From NCBI GenBank assembly GCA_028683385.1, contig JAQUIJ010000005.1:248001-312000 (forward strand): 64,000 bases of DNA. Direction: 5' to 3'. A program made the translations under genes and the position numbers. Source of the DNA: Prolixibacteraceae bacterium. Its GTDB lineage: Bacteria; Bacteroidota; Bacteroidia; Bacteroidales; Prolixibacteraceae. The notes under the pieces were generated by a model, which made no database searches, was not told the DNA's origin, and worked only from the letters and a program-made list of their open reading frames with translations. This document shows positions 6,624 to 57,406 of the stretch, in pieces (positions within the stretch are counted from its first letter, which is position 1; every line of letters begins with the position of its first letter).

Positions 6624-6654
6624 ATTGATGTGTTTAGTTATTTTTTTTGTTTCG

Positions 6655-6735
6655 GGTTGCAGGTTCCATGTTCCGGGTTTAAAAAACTCGCATCACGTAA
6701 CACGCAACAATTATTACTGTTTACTGCGACTGATC
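6655..6735. repeat. short-word repeats between ccoNO and ccoS
   Basis: The gap contains GTTGCAGGTTCC and CGTAACACGCAAC words, then a CACTGCGACTG repeat that enters the 3' end of ccoS. This type of repeat is scattered through the window. No gene is present. Confidence 0.4.
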
Positions 6736-17937: not shown

Positions 17938-18267
17938 CTACCATTTCAAACGGTTCAAAAGGTTAATATCTACAGAATCTACGTTGCGTTTCATCATCAC
18001 CAGAATGGATAAGCCGACCGCAACTTCGGCAGCGGCTACAATCATGATAAAGAAAACGAAAACCTGTCCGGCCGGGTCGGAATGGTAGGCCGAAAAAGCG
18101 GCAACCAATAAATTTACTGAGTTGAACATGAGTTCGATACACATTAAAATGATGATTGTATTTCGCCTGAACAATACTCCCAGCAAACCAATGCTGAAAA
18201 GAGTTACGCATAAAAAAACGTAATGCTCTAATGGAATAATCTGTATGGCAGATGTTATGTCTTGCAT
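17938..18267 (-). CDS. nuoK: NADH-quinone oxidoreductase subunit K
   Basis: 109 residues, three helices. The two buried glutamates of the family are visible, in MCIELMFNSVNLL and in AAAEVAVGLSILV. It couples quinone chemistry to the antiporter subunits. Its ATG lies directly against the left arm of the S23 element (18268 onward), so its natural ribosome-binding region has been replaced by repeat sequence. Confidence 0.95.
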   Translation of the reverse strand: MQDITSAIQIIPLEHYVFLCVTLFSIGLLGVLFRRNTIIILMCIELMFNSVNLLVAAFSAYHSDPAGQVFVFFIMIVAAAEVAVGLSILVMMKRNVDSVDINLLNRLKW

Positions 18268-18676
18268 AATTATGAGTTATAAGTTATGAGTTATAAATTT
18301 TTCTTGGAGGTGATAATTGCACTTCGAAGCATCTTCAGTAACTCATTGGCTTCATTGTTTATACTTTCAAATTCTTTATCGTTTATGTATTCTGTTTCTT
18401 TCAATAATTCAAGCCAGTAAATGGTTTCGTCACATTCTTTTTGAGCAATTCCTAATTTATGAATGAAGTCTTTTGTGCTTTCGGCGTTTTGTGCTTCACG
18501 AACTAAAGCTCCAATTGCAGTTCCGCTTCTCAATAATTGCTTGCTCAGCACATATTCCTTTTTTATTTCGGTCAAATATTGAAAAAGCCTGATGACCCGC
18601 ACTGCAAAAGCAAAACTCTTATCTTTTATGATGCTTTTCTTCTCGCTCATAACTTATAATTAATAACTCATAACTT
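18268..18676. mobile_element. S23-bearing IVS-like inserted element in the nuo operon
   Basis: The element is bounded by inverted arms made of TTATGAGTTATAAG words. The left arm has two tandem copies (18270-18283 and 18284-18297); the right arm (18646-18676) carries the reverse complement (AAGTTATGAGTTAT core). It contains one complete ORF, a four-helix-bundle S23 protein, whose ATG and stop both lie in the arms. The stop codon of nuoJ also lies in the right arm. It sits between nuoJ and nuoK, normally neighbouring genes. It has no transposase. Confidence 0.6.
18291..18650 (-). CDS. four-helix-bundle S23 / 23S rRNA intervening-sequence protein
   Basis: 119 residues. Family pattern: KSFAFAVRVIRLFQYL at the N-terminus, QLLRSGTAIGALVREAQNA (39-57), DFIHKLGIAQKECDETIYWLELL, and a last helix NEANELLKMLRSAIITS. 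It is the TIGR02436-type protein first seen as an ORF inside intervening sequences of 23S rRNA genes; related Avd proteins help diversity-generating reverse transcriptases. No reverse transcriptase or rRNA is nearby. Function is unknown; RNA binding is inferred. It is not a Complex I subunit despite lying in the operon. Confidence 0.88.
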   Translation of the reverse strand: MSEKKSIIKDKSFAFAVRVIRLFQYLTEIKKEYVLSKQLLRSGTAIGALVREAQNAESTKDFIHKLGIAQKECDETIYWLELLKETEYINDKEFESINNEANELLKMLRSAIITSKKNL

Positions 18677-19171
18677 CTTTGACTCGTCTTTTTTGCCGAA
18701 CATGATTGCACCAATCATAGCTGAAATAAATAGAACTGATGATACTTCGAAGGGCAAAAGGAATTCCTTAAACAATGTTTTGCCTACTTCGGAAACCAAT
18801 CCGATTTGGTTGGTAAACGGGTAGCGCGGATGTATCTCAAACGTCAGTCGTGTTGCTGCAACCATAACCAGAAAGAATAATCCTCCGGTTATTACGGCAG
18901 ATATTCTGGTTACCGAGGTTTTTGTTGGAATGGTTACTTTGTTCAAATTCAGGAGCATGATTACAAACAGAAACAAAACCATAATAGCTCCCGTGTAAAC
19001 AATTAAGTGTACCACCGCCAGAAACTGGGCATTCAGCAAGATGTAATGACCCGCCATAGCGATAAAGCATACAATCAGAGCAAGAACACTGTTTATAGGA
19101 CTTCTGGTTGAGACAACCATCAATGCGCTAATAACCATGATTGCAGAAAGCAGGTAAAATAGAAATGTCAT
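18668..19171 (-). CDS. nuoJ: NADH-quinone oxidoreductase subunit J
   Basis: 167 residues, five helices. The helix-3 region VHLIVYTGAIMVLFLFVIMLL is the conserved pi-bulge segment that rotates during turnover. It connects the quinone site to proton pumping. The last codons (KKL-stop) are encoded within the right arm of the S23 element, so the C-terminus may have been altered by the insertion. Confidence 0.95.
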   Translation of the reverse strand: MTFLFYLLSAIMVISALMVVSTRSPINSVLALIVCFIAMAGHYILLNAQFLAVVHLIVYTGAIMVLFLFVIMLLNLNKVTIPTKTSVTRISAVITGGLFFLVMVAATRLTFEIHPRYPFTNQIGLVSEVGKTLFKEFLLPFEVSSVLFISAMIGAIMFGKKDESKKL

Positions 19172-19190: not shown

Positions 19191-19281
19191 AGTGCCTAGA
19201 GTTCGAAGTGCCTAAACTGCCTAGAGTTAAATGCCCGAAGGAAGTACTCTAGGCACTCCAAACTTTAGGCACTCCGAACTT
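19191..19281. repeat. inverted word-repeat hairpin in the nuoI-nuoJ gap
   Basis: AGTGCCTAGAGTT/AGTGCCTAAA words on the left (19191-19228) and their reverse complement on the right (19246-19281). The outer stem 19201-19216 with 19264-19279 matches 15 of 16; the inner stem 19218-19227 with 19246-19255 is perfect over 10 bp. It fills almost the whole 112-bp gap and carries no ORF. Confidence 0.75.
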
Positions 19282-24120: not shown

Positions 24121-25356
24121 CTAGGCATCCAGCTCTCCGGCAATTACGTTCATCGAACTCAGCGTGATGACAGCATCCGACAACATGTTTCCGGTTACCA
24201 TTTCAGGATAAGCCTGGTAATAGATAAAACAGGGTCTCCGAAAATGCAATCGGGAAGGAGTGCGGCCACCATCGCTAATCAGGTAAAAACCCAGTTCGCC
24301 GTTGGCTGCTTCAATACAATGGTAAACTTCTCCTGCCGGAATATCGGTTTCGCCCATCACAATTTTGAAATGCCAGATGAGAGCTTCCATGTTGTTGTAC
24401 ACTTTCTCTTTAGGTGGCAAAACAAAACGCGGATCGGCAGCAAAATAGGTTTCTTTGTCGTCCATCCGATCGAGTTTGGCCAAAGCCTGCTCAATGATGG
24501 AAAGACTTTGTTTCATTTCTTCCTGACGAACCATAAACCGATCGTAGGTGTCGCCACTTTGACCGATTGGCACAATAAAGTCGAATTCGTCGTACGAACA
24601 ATACGGATTCATCACCCGAACATCGTAATCAACACCGCAAGCACGAAGATTTGGACCGGTAAATCCGTATGCCAAAGCTCGTTCAGCCGAAAATGCACCG
24701 ACGTTGATGGTGCGATCCATGAAAATACGGTTTCGAGCCAGCAGGTTTTCAAATTCCTGAAGATGGGCCGGGTACGTTTTCAGGAAATAACGTATTTTAT
24801 CCCATGCTTTTTCGCTGAAATTACGCTCGAATCCTCCAATACGTCCCATGTTGGTGGTTAACCGTGAACCACATATTTCTTCGTAAATTTCGTAAATGAA
24901 TTCCCTGTCCTGAAACAAGTAAGTAAACCCGGTAAGGGCGCCACTGTCAACACCAATAACGGTGTTGCAAACCAAATGGTCGGCAATACGAGCCAATTCC
25001 ATGACAATTATCCGAAGGTAATCGACACGTTTTGGAGTTTCAATGCCGAGTAATTTTTCGACAGTCATGTGCCAGCCCATGTTATTCAATGGGGATGAGC
25101 AATAGTTTAGTCTGTCGGTTAGCGGAGTGATCTGGTAAAAAGGCCGGTGCTCGGCTATTTTTTCAAAAGCGCGGTGGATGTATCCAATGGTTTGTTCGGT
25201 ACTGACAATGAATTCGCCATCCATCAGCATCACATTCTGGAATACGCCATGCGTTGCCGGATGCGTAGGTCCGACATTCAGCGTGTTATATTCCTTCGGC
25301 TCTTCAGTAGTTACTATGTCTTTTGCCCAATAACCTGTAGTGAAATTCTGTGCCAT
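24121..25356 (-). CDS. nuoD: NADH-quinone oxidoreductase subunit D
   Basis: 411 residues, 49-kDa family related to [NiFe]-hydrogenase large subunits but without Ni ligands. It has GPTHPATHG (29-37), the quinone-site His and Tyr in GYIHRAFEKIAEHR and DRLNYCSSPLNNMGW, and the C-terminal SLDPVMGEVDR-type end replaced by SSMNVIAGELDA. It forms the quinone pocket with NuoB. It is separate from nuoC, unlike fused NuoCD of enterobacteria. Confidence 0.95.
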   Translation of the reverse strand: MAQNFTTGYWAKDIVTTEEPKEYNTLNVGPTHPATHGVFQNVMLMDGEFIVSTEQTIGYIHRAFEKIAEHRPFYQITPLTDRLNYCSSPLNNMGWHMTVEKLLGIETPKRVDYLRIIVMELARIADHLVCNTVIGVDSGALTGFTYLFQDREFIYEIYEEICGSRLTTNMGRIGGFERNFSEKAWDKIRYFLKTYPAHLQEFENLLARNRIFMDRTINVGAFSAERALAYGFTGPNLRACGVDYDVRVMNPYCSYDEFDFIVPIGQSGDTYDRFMVRQEEMKQSLSIIEQALAKLDRMDDKETYFAADPRFVLPPKEKVYNNMEALIWHFKIVMGETDIPAGEVYHCIEAANGELGFYLISDGGRTPSRLHFRRPCFIYYQAYPEMVTGNMLSDAVITLSSMNVIAGELDA

Positions 25357-56766: not shown

Positions 56767-57246
56767 ATGAGAAAGATTAAAAATATTCACCTGAACGACG
56801 ATCCGGAAGTTTACCAGTGCTTTGGATGCTCTCCTTACAATGAATTTGGATTACACCTCGAATTTTGGGAAGACGGCGACGAAGTGGTCTCATCTTGGAA
56901 TCCTCGTCCGATTTTACAGAGTTATCCGAAAGTTTTGCATGGTGGAATTCAGTCGACTTTGCTTGATGAAATTGCCGGTTGGGTTGTGTATGTTAAATGC
57001 GGAACGGTTGGCGTAACCGCTGAAATGAAAGTCAGGTTTAAAAAGCCGTTGATGATCGATCAGGGCGAAATTACCATCCGGGCAAAACTGTTGGAACAAA
57101 ACAAACGAATGGCAACAATTCAATCCCGATTGATCAATTCTTTAGGTGTGGTTTGTGCCGAAGCCGAACTGCGATTTTTCCTGTTGTCTGAAACTGAAGC
57201 TCGCGAGAAATATCATTATCCGGGCGTTGAGGCGTTTTTTGAATGA
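56767..57246 (+). CDS. PaaI-family hotdog thioesterase
   Basis: 159 residues, hotdog fold. The motif HGGIQSTLLDEIAGWVVY (about 60-77) carries the catalytic Asp/Glu region, and an FGCSPYNEFGLHLEFWEDGD N-terminal segment is typical. It hydrolyses an acyl-CoA thioester of unknown kind. It may be leaderless (see the -7 box at 56754). The 3' flank is a long run of GAAGACC-type words. Confidence 0.85.
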   Translation: MRKIKNIHLNDDPEVYQCFGCSPYNEFGLHLEFWEDGDEVVSSWNPRPILQSYPKVLHGGIQSTLLDEIAGWVVYVKCGTVGVTAEMKVRFKKPLMIDQGEITIRAKLLEQNKRMATIQSRLINSLGVVCAEAELRFFLLSETEAREKYHYPGVEAFFE

Positions 57247-57406
57247 AGATCGGAGACCGAAGACCGAAGACGGAAGACCGAAGCGCCGCTCACTGAGCCG
57301 CGAAGCGAGTATTTGAATATGAAGTCAGAAGATCGAAGTCGGAAGTCGGAAGACCGAAGACCGAAGACCGGAAACCGGAAGACGGAAGACCGAAGCGCTA
57401 CTCCTT
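57247..57406 (+). repeat. GAAGACCGAAG tandem word repeat
   Basis: About 160 bases of near-tandem GAAGACC/GGAAGACG/GAAGTCGG words in two blocks, split by a GC-rich GCGCCGCTCACTGAGCCG segment. The block follows the thioesterase stop. There is no ORF. Confidence 0.7.

What the first reader, a model, noticed from the sequence alone, without database searches (positions are those of the whole stretch)
18268..18676. An IVS-like element with an S23 gene has inserted into the nuo operon
Seen: an inverted pair of arms (TTATGAGTTATAAG words) bounds one S23 ORF, whose start codon (TTATGAGC) and stop codon lie in the arms, as does the nuoJ stop. nuoJ and nuoK are otherwise neighbouring genes. Known: S23 proteins were named from intervening sequences that split 23S rRNA genes, are bounded by inverted repeats and are cut out by RNase III. 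Inference: this is the same kind of element in an mRNA operon, perhaps excised or tolerated as RNA. The protein-with-arms unit also suggests how it copies itself.
Basis: partly seen in the sequence, partly recalled or inferred. Interest (0 to 1): 0.78.

Follow-up and report, generated by a model that had tools for sequence, protein, structure and literature searches.

The report
Mobile S23 gene with heptamer-repeat arms
A small gene named after inserts in ribosomal RNA sits, with mirror-image arms made of a repeated seven-letter word, between two genes of a respiratory operon; the same gene-plus-arms build is seen in many bacterial phyla and looks mobile, which may help explain why seven-letter repeats are so common in bacterial genomes.

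Summary
In detail: one S23 (PF05635) ORF lies between nuoJ and nuoK inside 25-nt inverted arms of TTATGAG/TTATAAG heptamers. The site is polymorphic in eight genomes of the genus (own included): S23 in four, a remnant in one, a half-arm in one, no S23 in two.

S23 genes generally have this build. Inverted arms above the 99th percentile of other places flank 83 of 96 S23 genes in the genus and 67 of 77 from about a dozen phyla; neighbouring genes 11 of 167 and 10 of 204. The best arm period is seven in 60 of 83 and 65 of 67. Gene and arms travel together: one genome holds two copies (91% protein identity) at unrelated sites, alike only between the arms. Cognate gene-less arrays are commonest in carrier genomes, though kinship confounds this.

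Best reading: a mobile element, sense-oriented in operon junctions, of one kind with S23-bearing 23S rRNA IVSs (a published IVS has heptamers too). RNase III excision is untested; G·U counts in the stems show no RNA-level constraint. How it moves is unknown: no PF00078 reverse transcriptase was detected in a single-contig genome with 12 S23 genes, and no Y1 locus scored carried heptamer arms.

The parts
18291..18650 (-). S23 / four-helix-bundle gene (119 aa), the only gene of the element
   Evidence: dN/dS 0.01-0.04 in the 5 of 6 pairs among 4 nuoJK orthologues where dS is not zero
18649..18673 (-). upstream arm (relative to S23), heptamers TTATGAG TTATTAA TTATAAG; holds the nuoJ stop and touches the S23 start
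18270..18294 (-). downstream arm, inverted copy of the heptamers; holds the S23 stop
18668..19171 (-). nuoJ, whose stop codon lies in the arm
   Evidence: C-terminal end differs at the sites without S23
17938..18267 (-). nuoK, starting after 2 nt beyond the element
19191..19273 (.). gene-less inverted repeat array (AGTGCCTA words) upstream of nuoJ, at the junction with the ORF called nuoI by recall; like the flanks of another S23 lineage (loci L080, L094)
   Evidence: self-inverted score 41; best scores 63 and 69 against flanks of S23 loci L080 and L094
25362..25441 (.). solo period-7 arrays just upstream of the 411-aa ORF 24121-25356 (called nuoD by recall), partly TTATGAG-type words
57240..57400 (.). 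solo period-7 arrays, GAAGACC/GGAGACC type (two arrays, 57240-57288 and 57321-57400)
6649..6679 (.). solo period-7 array (GGTTTCGGGTTGC type)

Best explanation
The feature is a roughly 405-bp mobile element: one S23 (four-helix-bundle, Avd-related) gene between inverted arms of degenerate seven-base tandem repeats. SHOWN by comparison: it is an insertion that comes and goes at gene junctions; arms and gene form one unit that has been at several sites; most S23 genes sampled, in about ten phyla, have this build, each lineage with its own heptamer; arms also exist without the gene. INFERRED from position and orientation: it has no promoter of its own and is read from the host operon, the arms meeting stop and start codons so that neighbours stay translatable. 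INFERRED, weaker: the S23 protein recognises its own arm repeats (as single-stranded DNA or RNA stem) and helps an enzyme supplied in trans to copy the unit, or just arm material, into other junctions, so carriers collect gene-less cognate arrays. The S23-bearing 23S rRNA IVS would be the special case that landed in a ribosomal RNA gene. UNKNOWN: the enzyme, whether the intermediate is RNA or DNA, and whether RNase III cuts the stem in nuo mRNA.
For: nuoJ-nuoK site: S23 in own genome, G012, G001, G021; remnant in G014 (score 48 v maximum 36 of 300 shuffles); half-arm in G003 (31 v 28); no S23 in G006 and G020. Arms: 83 of 96 genus and 67 of 77 broad S23 genes above the 99th percentile of other places; neighbour genes 11 of 167 and 10 of 204. 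Period 7 best in 60 of 83 and 65 of 67. The 6 pairs at different sites with at least 80% protein identity (from two lineages) all share arms in the same orientation, none in the other. Genome G009 holds two copies (91% full-length protein identity) at unrelated sites with similarity ending at the arms; G011 holds copies on both sides of one ABC gene (the first at a contig end), and G010 an intact and an internally deleted copy with both arms. Orientation, where neighbours could be called: both co-directional 52, both opposite 0 (genus, 64 of 96 callable); 42 v 4 (broad, 56 of 77 callable). Cognate arrays are commoner in carriers for 3 of 3 heptamers tested (p 0.0002, 0.005, 0.005). dN/dS 0.01-0.23 over the printed pairs with a defined value in five lineages. 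Published 23S IVS with the same anatomy.
Against: No movement was observed; all inference is comparative. Against the stricter control of mismatched S23 flanks (99th percentiles 36 and 48.6) 29 of 96 and 30 of 77 exceed. No target-site duplication could be defined. No enzyme was found: no PF00078 match in single-contig genome G012 (12 S23 genes) or in G021, G008, G014, G015, G001, G017; none of 17 Y1 loci scored, of 20 fetched, shows period-7 arms by eye. RNA-level stem constraint not seen. Over all pairs at different sites arm similarity does not follow protein identity (Spearman 0.016), so any protein-arm recognition must be loose or fast-evolving. The carrier-array association is confounded by kinship (most for TTATGAG), arrays also occur in non-carriers, and the reversed control pattern for TTATGAG has matches in some other genomes (up to 11, in G006). 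13 of 96 and 10 of 77 S23 genes are at or below the threshold, among them the only Desulfobacterales and Ignavibacteria loci.
Confidence: 0.68

Rival explanations
1. RNA-level IVS: the stem is cut by RNase III in the nuo mRNA and the element persists, and perhaps spreads, as an excised or reverse-transcribed RNA, with S23 acting as Avd does with a reverse transcriptase.
For: Sense orientation in host transcripts (52 v 0; 42 v 4); 23S IVS precedent cut by RNase III (PMC4990558, passages); the S23 relative in L103 also passes the bAvd cut-off (44.4 v 40 bits), though the window's own protein is not listed for bAvd.
Against: No excess of G.U over A.C stem mismatches (60 v 82; 48 v 41); fold z -0.90; no PF00078 match in single-contig genome G012 with 12 S23 genes, though reverse transcriptases outside that family would be missed and the own genome has one match.
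Confidence: 0.25
2. REP/RAYT-like DNA element: hairpin-ended single-stranded DNA moved by a Y1 (HUH) transposase encoded elsewhere, S23 being an accessory or passenger gene.
For: Gene plus inverted arms plus dispersed gene-less arms is the REP/RAYT layout (recalled); Y1 genes are in 23 of 23 congeners; gene-less hairpins at the ABC junction.
Against: 20 Y1 loci were fetched and 17 scored; 11 of the 17 show repeats of another, palindromic kind, 6 show none of note, and none shows period-7 arms by eye.
Confidence: 0.2
3. Domesticated operon module: S23 with arms is kept because it regulates or insulates the host operon; the repeats are slippage products around a useful gene.
For: Strong purifying selection on the protein (dN/dS 0.01-0.04 in the 5 of 6 nuoJK pairs with non-zero dS; 0.03-0.23 in the printed pairs of the other lineages); same junction kept in four genomes.
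Against: No intact S23 at the same junction in four of eight genomes, decayed in one of those; operons invaded are unrelated (nuo, ABC transporter, restriction-modification); inverted, not direct, arrays on both sides.
Confidence: 0.15
4. Chance: S23 genes were inserted into pre-existing heptamer arrays typical of these genomes.
For: Heptamer arrays are common in these genomes with or without S23.
Against: Arms face each other across S23 in 83 of 96 and 67 of 77, against 11 of 167 and 10 of 204 neighbour genes; near-identical elements carry the same arms to different sites; direct-orientation scores are less often high (34 of 96, 14 of 77).
Confidence: 0.05

Closest known systems
23S rRNA intervening sequences with an S23 ORF (for example the 428-nt IVS described in PMC4990558, passages)
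   Same: S23-family ORF, sense to the host transcript, terminal inverted repeats (28 bp there, 25 nt here), tandem heptamers by the start codon, about 400-450 nt
   Different: Here in a protein-coding operon, not in rRNA; RNase III excision not shown; one of many copies with lineage-specific heptamers and gene-less relatives; S23 under strong purifying selection, whereas that paper infers a decaying ORF
REP/RAYT elements (recalled)
   Same: One gene between inverted repeats that are also dispersed without the gene
   Different: Gene is S23, not a Y1 transposase; repeats are 7-nt tandem arrays, not single palindromes; Y1 loci scored in this genus carry other repeats or none
Diversity-generating retroelement accessory protein Avd
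   Same: Related protein: the L103 S23 scores 44.4 bits to bAvd, cut-off 40; PMC10053308 (passages) notes that PF05635 resembles Avd
   Different: Immediate neighbours are nuoJ and nuoK, no reverse transcriptase; template and variable repeats not looked for
Heptanucleotide repeat arrays of Cyanobacteria, Beggiatoaceae and Bacteroidetes (PMC4679880, PMC4692102, passages)
   Same: Intergenic 7-nt tandem arrays in distant phyla, horizontal spread suspected with no mechanism evident (PMC4679880)
   Different: The passages seen of those papers link the repeats to no S23 gene; here they are tied to S23 genes as inverted arms
MITEs (recalled)
   Same: Gene-less hairpins and internally deleted copies at gene junctions
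   Different: No parental transposase known, no target-site duplication defined

Membership tests
23S rRNA intervening sequence (IVS) | Lies within a 23S rRNA gene | tested here: not met
   Between nuoJ and nuoK; no rRNA match in 98 S23 loci scanned with Rfam (18, 80)
23S rRNA intervening sequence (IVS) | Bounded by complementary termini forming a stem | tested here: met
   25-nt arms, 88%; 83 of 96 and 67 of 77 S23 genes
23S rRNA intervening sequence (IVS) | S23-family ORF in sense to the transcript (S23-bearing subset) | tested here: met
   PF05635; nuoJ, S23 and nuoK on one strand; 52 v 0 and 42 v 4 in others
23S rRNA intervening sequence (IVS) | Excised by RNase III without religation | not testable with these tools
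   No RNA data; G.U test negative; fold z -0.90
REP/RAYT | Encodes a Y1 (HUH) transposase | tested here: not met
   Only PF05635 found in the ORF
REP/RAYT | Inverted flanking repeats also dispersed without the gene | tested here: met
Diversity-generating retroelement | Reverse transcriptase in the cassette | tested here: not met
   Immediate neighbours are nuoJ and nuoK; single-contig congener G012 has the element and no PF00078 match
Diversity-generating retroelement | Template and variable repeats with adenine mutagenesis | not tested
   Not searched for
Transposon or MITE | Target-site duplication | tested here: inconclusive
   Sites with and without S23 compared by eye; no clean duplication, flanks too diverged
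Transposon or MITE | Copies at unrelated sites with sharp boundaries | tested here: met
   L101 and L103 in genome G009, with L098 and L107 from G011 and G010

The most novel reading that the evidence does not exclude
S23/four-helix-bundle proteins are the one shared gene of an unrecognised, phylum-spanning class of mobile elements with no recognised enzyme of their own: the protein recognises the lineage's own heptamer and directs its copying into gene junctions, so that a large part of the heptanucleotide repeats of bacterial genomes are footprints of S23 elements, and S23-bearing 23S rRNA IVSs are members that landed in rRNA. The invariant polar residues of the protein (genus set: Q38 and E52 in 94 of 94, E75 in 93 of 94) could even be a catalytic site.
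Probability: 0.4. Interest if true: 0.93.

Novelty: new variant of a known kind. Interest (0 to 1): 0.8.

Why it matters
It gives a candidate agent for two old puzzles: what the S23 protein of ribosomal IVSs is for, and why heptamers are so common a repeat length (a 2015 paper on TAACTGA arrays inferred possible horizontal transmission but 'no mechanism is evident', PMC4679880, abstract and passages). It also warns against reading S23 genes found inside CRISPR, restriction or respiratory operons as parts of those systems: PMC3936711 (passages) discusses 18 such genes in cas loci as a function of interest, and here S23 sits between restriction or methylase genes on plasmids, with clear heptamer arms in L152 and weak ones in L151. 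If the protein moves its own repeats, it is a mobility principle without a recognised transposase.

Tried and rejected
Reverse transcriptase in trans as a requirement: weakened, since no PF00078 match was found in 7 of 23 genomes, among them single-contig G012 with 12 S23 genes. Y1 transposase as carrier of the same arms: 20 Y1 loci fetched, 17 scored by the script (two too short for its length filter, one without an ORF by its motif filter; one non-Y1 locus was also printed); 11 of 17 had inverted or direct repeats above 24, palindromic and not period 7 by eye. RNA-constraint test by G.U v A.C mismatches: no signal. Overall protein-arm correlation at different sites: none (Spearman 0.016; 136 of 500 permutations reach it); coupling is seen only at high protein identity. 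Alignment A1 was too diverse for a scan, so A2 was used. Paper searches in the held library listed nothing that I recognised as a description of S23 genes with heptamer arms outside rRNA; subscription papers are not covered. The own genome's 23S rRNA genes were not examined.

Rows dropped or limits: the genus has 195 PF05635 matches by the table (own genome included); 97 loci were fetched, mostly the higher-scoring ones, 99 ORF matches found in 96 of them, 96 with both flanks. They include orthologous sites (240 of 3403 pairs of the 83 elements with arms share a site), so the genus rows are not independent. That set was picked with two peptide patterns that include Q38 and E75, so their conservation there is partly by construction; the genus set is free of this. 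Conservation: 170 of 173 proteins kept. dN/dS: 15 of 21 pairs of one lineage were printed, and many dS values exceed 1. Orientation: 64 of 96 and 56 of 77 had callable neighbours. ABC2-permease junction: 22 orthologous loci, 20 classified by eye, G011 through L098; G021 and G002 not classified. Plasmid S23: 25 records found, 6 loci fetched, chosen for spread over phyla.

Full report
What was claimed and what is there. The S23 ORF (18291-18650, minus strand) and its neighbours nuoJ and nuoK are as described. The arms are 18270-18294 and 18649-18673, 25 nt and 88% complementary, built from TTATGAG, TTATAAG and TTATTAA heptamers. The S23 stop and the nuoJ stop lie in the arms, the S23 start overlaps the inner end of the upstream arm, and nuoK starts after 2 nt beyond the other arm. 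The protein is PF05635 (1.3e-28) and TIGR02436; its nearest solved structure by sequence is 2rld (1.1e-36), then 2gsc (0.081).

It is an insertion. NuoK searched in 61 genomes (own included) gave eight loci of the genus with this operon, the own one among them. At the nuoJ-nuoK junction, S23 is present in the own genome, G012, G001 and G021; in G001 and G021 other sequence stands between upstream arm words and the gene. G014 has a decayed piece (score 48 against a maximum of 36 in 300 shuffles). G003 has no S23 but keeps AACTCATAACGTATAACT, half of one arm (31 v 28). G006 is empty. G020 has a different hairpin insert. A tree of the operon groups G003 with own and G012, so G003 probably lost the gene; the deeper forks are unresolved, so the insertion cannot be dated. 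The protein is under strong purifying selection among nuoJK copies (dN/dS 0.01-0.04 in the 5 of 6 pairs with non-zero dS; dS above 1 in 4 of them makes those rough).

It is one of many. The own genome has 8 PF05635 genes; 23 genomes of the genus hold 195 by the table. I compared the 250-nt flanks of 96 S23 genes by local alignment of the upstream with the reverse-complemented downstream flank. Median score 33 against 18 at 960 other places; 83 of 96 exceed the 99th percentile of those places (24), all 8 of the own genome among them; in direct orientation 34 of 96 do. A stricter control pairs upstream and downstream flanks of different S23 genes (99th percentile 36): 29 of 96 exceed it; S23 genes with like arms among the mismatched pairs probably raise that threshold. 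With real neighbouring genes as control, 11 of 167 exceed 24. The arms have period seven best in 60 of 83 and differ by lineage: GTTCCAA, GGAGACC, AGATATT, GTTACGG, CAGTGTT and others.

It is not confined to this genus. A scan of GTDB genomes with an S23 alignment returned the best 80 of 580 loci. The 77 with usable flanks come, by record title, from Cyanobacteria, Bacteroidota, Bacillota, Campylobacterota, Gammaproteobacteria, Desulfobacterales, Lentisphaeria, Elusimicrobiota, Planctomycetes, Cloacimonadota, Chlorobi and Ignavibacteria (phylum labels partly recalled). 67 of 77 exceed the 99th percentile of other places (28.8), 30 of 77 that of mismatched pairs (48.6), 14 of 77 exceed 28.8 in direct orientation, neighbour genes 10 of 204. 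The single Desulfobacterales and Ignavibacteria loci do not exceed it, so arms were found in ten of these twelve groups. Best period is seven in 65 of 67; identity at lag seven is 0.76 in the arms and 0.26 in the S23 core. Six plasmid loci, chosen from 25 records, were scored too: five show inverted heptamer arms at 37 to 78, one of them from Treponema (45, with a higher direct score of 85); the Chloroflexota one is weak (25). So heptamer arms look like a general property of S23 genes.

Gene and arms move together. For the 83 genus elements with arms, the 6 pairs at different sites with at least 80% protein identity, from two lineages, all share arms in the same orientation and none in the other; at 60-80% identity 20% of 61 do; lower, at most 4% per class; over all pairs there is no correlation. 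Genome G009 has two copies, 91% identical over the full protein, at unrelated sites; similarity begins and ends at the arms. G011 carries copies on both sides of one ABC gene, the first at a contig end, and G010 has one intact copy of this lineage plus an internally deleted one that keeps both arms. The ABC2-permease junction was compared in 22 genomes, 20 classified by eye: S23 elements in 3, gene-less GGGTTAC heptamer hairpins in 4, two other hairpin kinds in 6 and 4, short heptamer arrays in 2, and a 2-nt gap in 1. Gene junctions in this genus thus turn over small inserts quickly, S23 elements among them.

Gene-less arrays go with carriers. TTATGAG arrays (up to 2 mismatches, overlapping registers counted) number 10, 17, 12 and 19 in the four genomes with the nuoJK element (its own arms included), 6 and 5 in the two with a remnant or half-arm, and 2, 1 and fifteen zeros in the other 17 (p 0.0002). 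The reversed control pattern is absent from those six genomes but has up to 11 matches in others. CAGTGTT arrays number 30, 58 and 49 in the three carriers, against at most 32 elsewhere (p 0.005). GTTCCAA: 13, 16, 26, 14 against 0-23 (p 0.005). Carriers of the first set are close kin and those of the last were defined from fetched loci only, so this is association, not proof. In the window, a gene-less inverted array upstream of nuoJ (19191-19273) matches flanks of another S23 lineage.

How it works. Where neighbours could be called, S23 is read in the direction of its upstream neighbour in 64 of 64 genus cases and 49 of 56 broad cases; where both neighbours point the same way, S23 agrees in 52 of 52 and 42 of 46. 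Either the element relies on host transcription, or only sense copies survive. An RNA-stem function predicts more G.U than A.C mismatches between the arms; I found 60 v 82 and 48 v 41, so no such constraint is visible, and the arms may simply be young or matter as DNA. The upstream arm is richer in G than C in 70 of 83 and 47 of 67, so the arm tends to have a direction relative to the gene. No PF00078 reverse transcriptase was detected in seven genomes, including single-contig G012 with 12 S23 genes; Y1 transposases occur in all 23, but in 17 loci scored their flanks carry other repeats or none of note. In the genus set of 94 S23 proteins Q38 and E52 are invariant and E75 nearly so (93), S45 and N49 frequent (92, 87); the broad set of 76 agrees on Q38, E52 and E75 but was partly selected on motifs with Q38 and E75. 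The window's own protein has A45 and L49. Polar invariants in a family this diverged (20-23% identity between some members) suggest an active or binding site.

Comparison with the known. A published S23-bearing 23S IVS has a 28-bp stem, a sense ORF, RNase III excision and tandem GACAGAT heptamers before the start codon (PMC4990558, passages); that paper infers that the ORF is decaying. S23 genes in CPR 16S and 23S inserts are reported in PMC11270868 (passages), S23 genes in cas loci in PMC3936711 (passages), and likeness of PF05635 to Avd in PMC10053308 (passages); one S23 here passes the bAvd cut-off. Heptamer arrays are described without an S23 link in the passages seen of PMC4679880 and PMC4692102. 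None of the passages seen joins S23 genes to heptamer arms outside rRNA.

Verdict. The element is IVS-like and probably of one kind with S23-bearing IVSs, but it fails the location criterion of the named family. The wider pattern is the more important finding.

Noticed in passing
L241:2281-2652 (-), also the ABC1-ABC2 junction of L235 and L237: A GxxExxY (TIGR04256, PDDEXK_3) gene sits at the ABC1-ABC2 junction between inverted arms of ACCACAGAGTTTCACAGAGT words (score 47); gene-less relatives appear to stand at the same junction in other genomes (by eye). It may be a second gene family with the same lifestyle.
   Followed up: partly
L235-L251, ABC2-permease junction: Two further gene-less hairpin kinds (GTAGAGACG..CGTCTCTAC type in 6 genomes; CCTCCCCC..GGGGGAGG type in 4) occupy the same operon junction in different genomes.
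   Followed up: no
L036, nuoJ-nuoK junction of G020: A C/G-rich inverted-arm insert without an obvious gene occupies the site where S23 sits in the window.
   Followed up: no
L151, L152, L153: S23 genes lie between helicase and methylase, HsdS and HsdR, and DUF1156 and Swt1 genes on plasmids, so their link to defence may be insertion rather than function.
   Followed up: partly
L260, L266, L267, L273 and others: Y1 transposase genes of the genus are often flanked by direct and inverted palindromic repeats of REP type.
   Followed up: no
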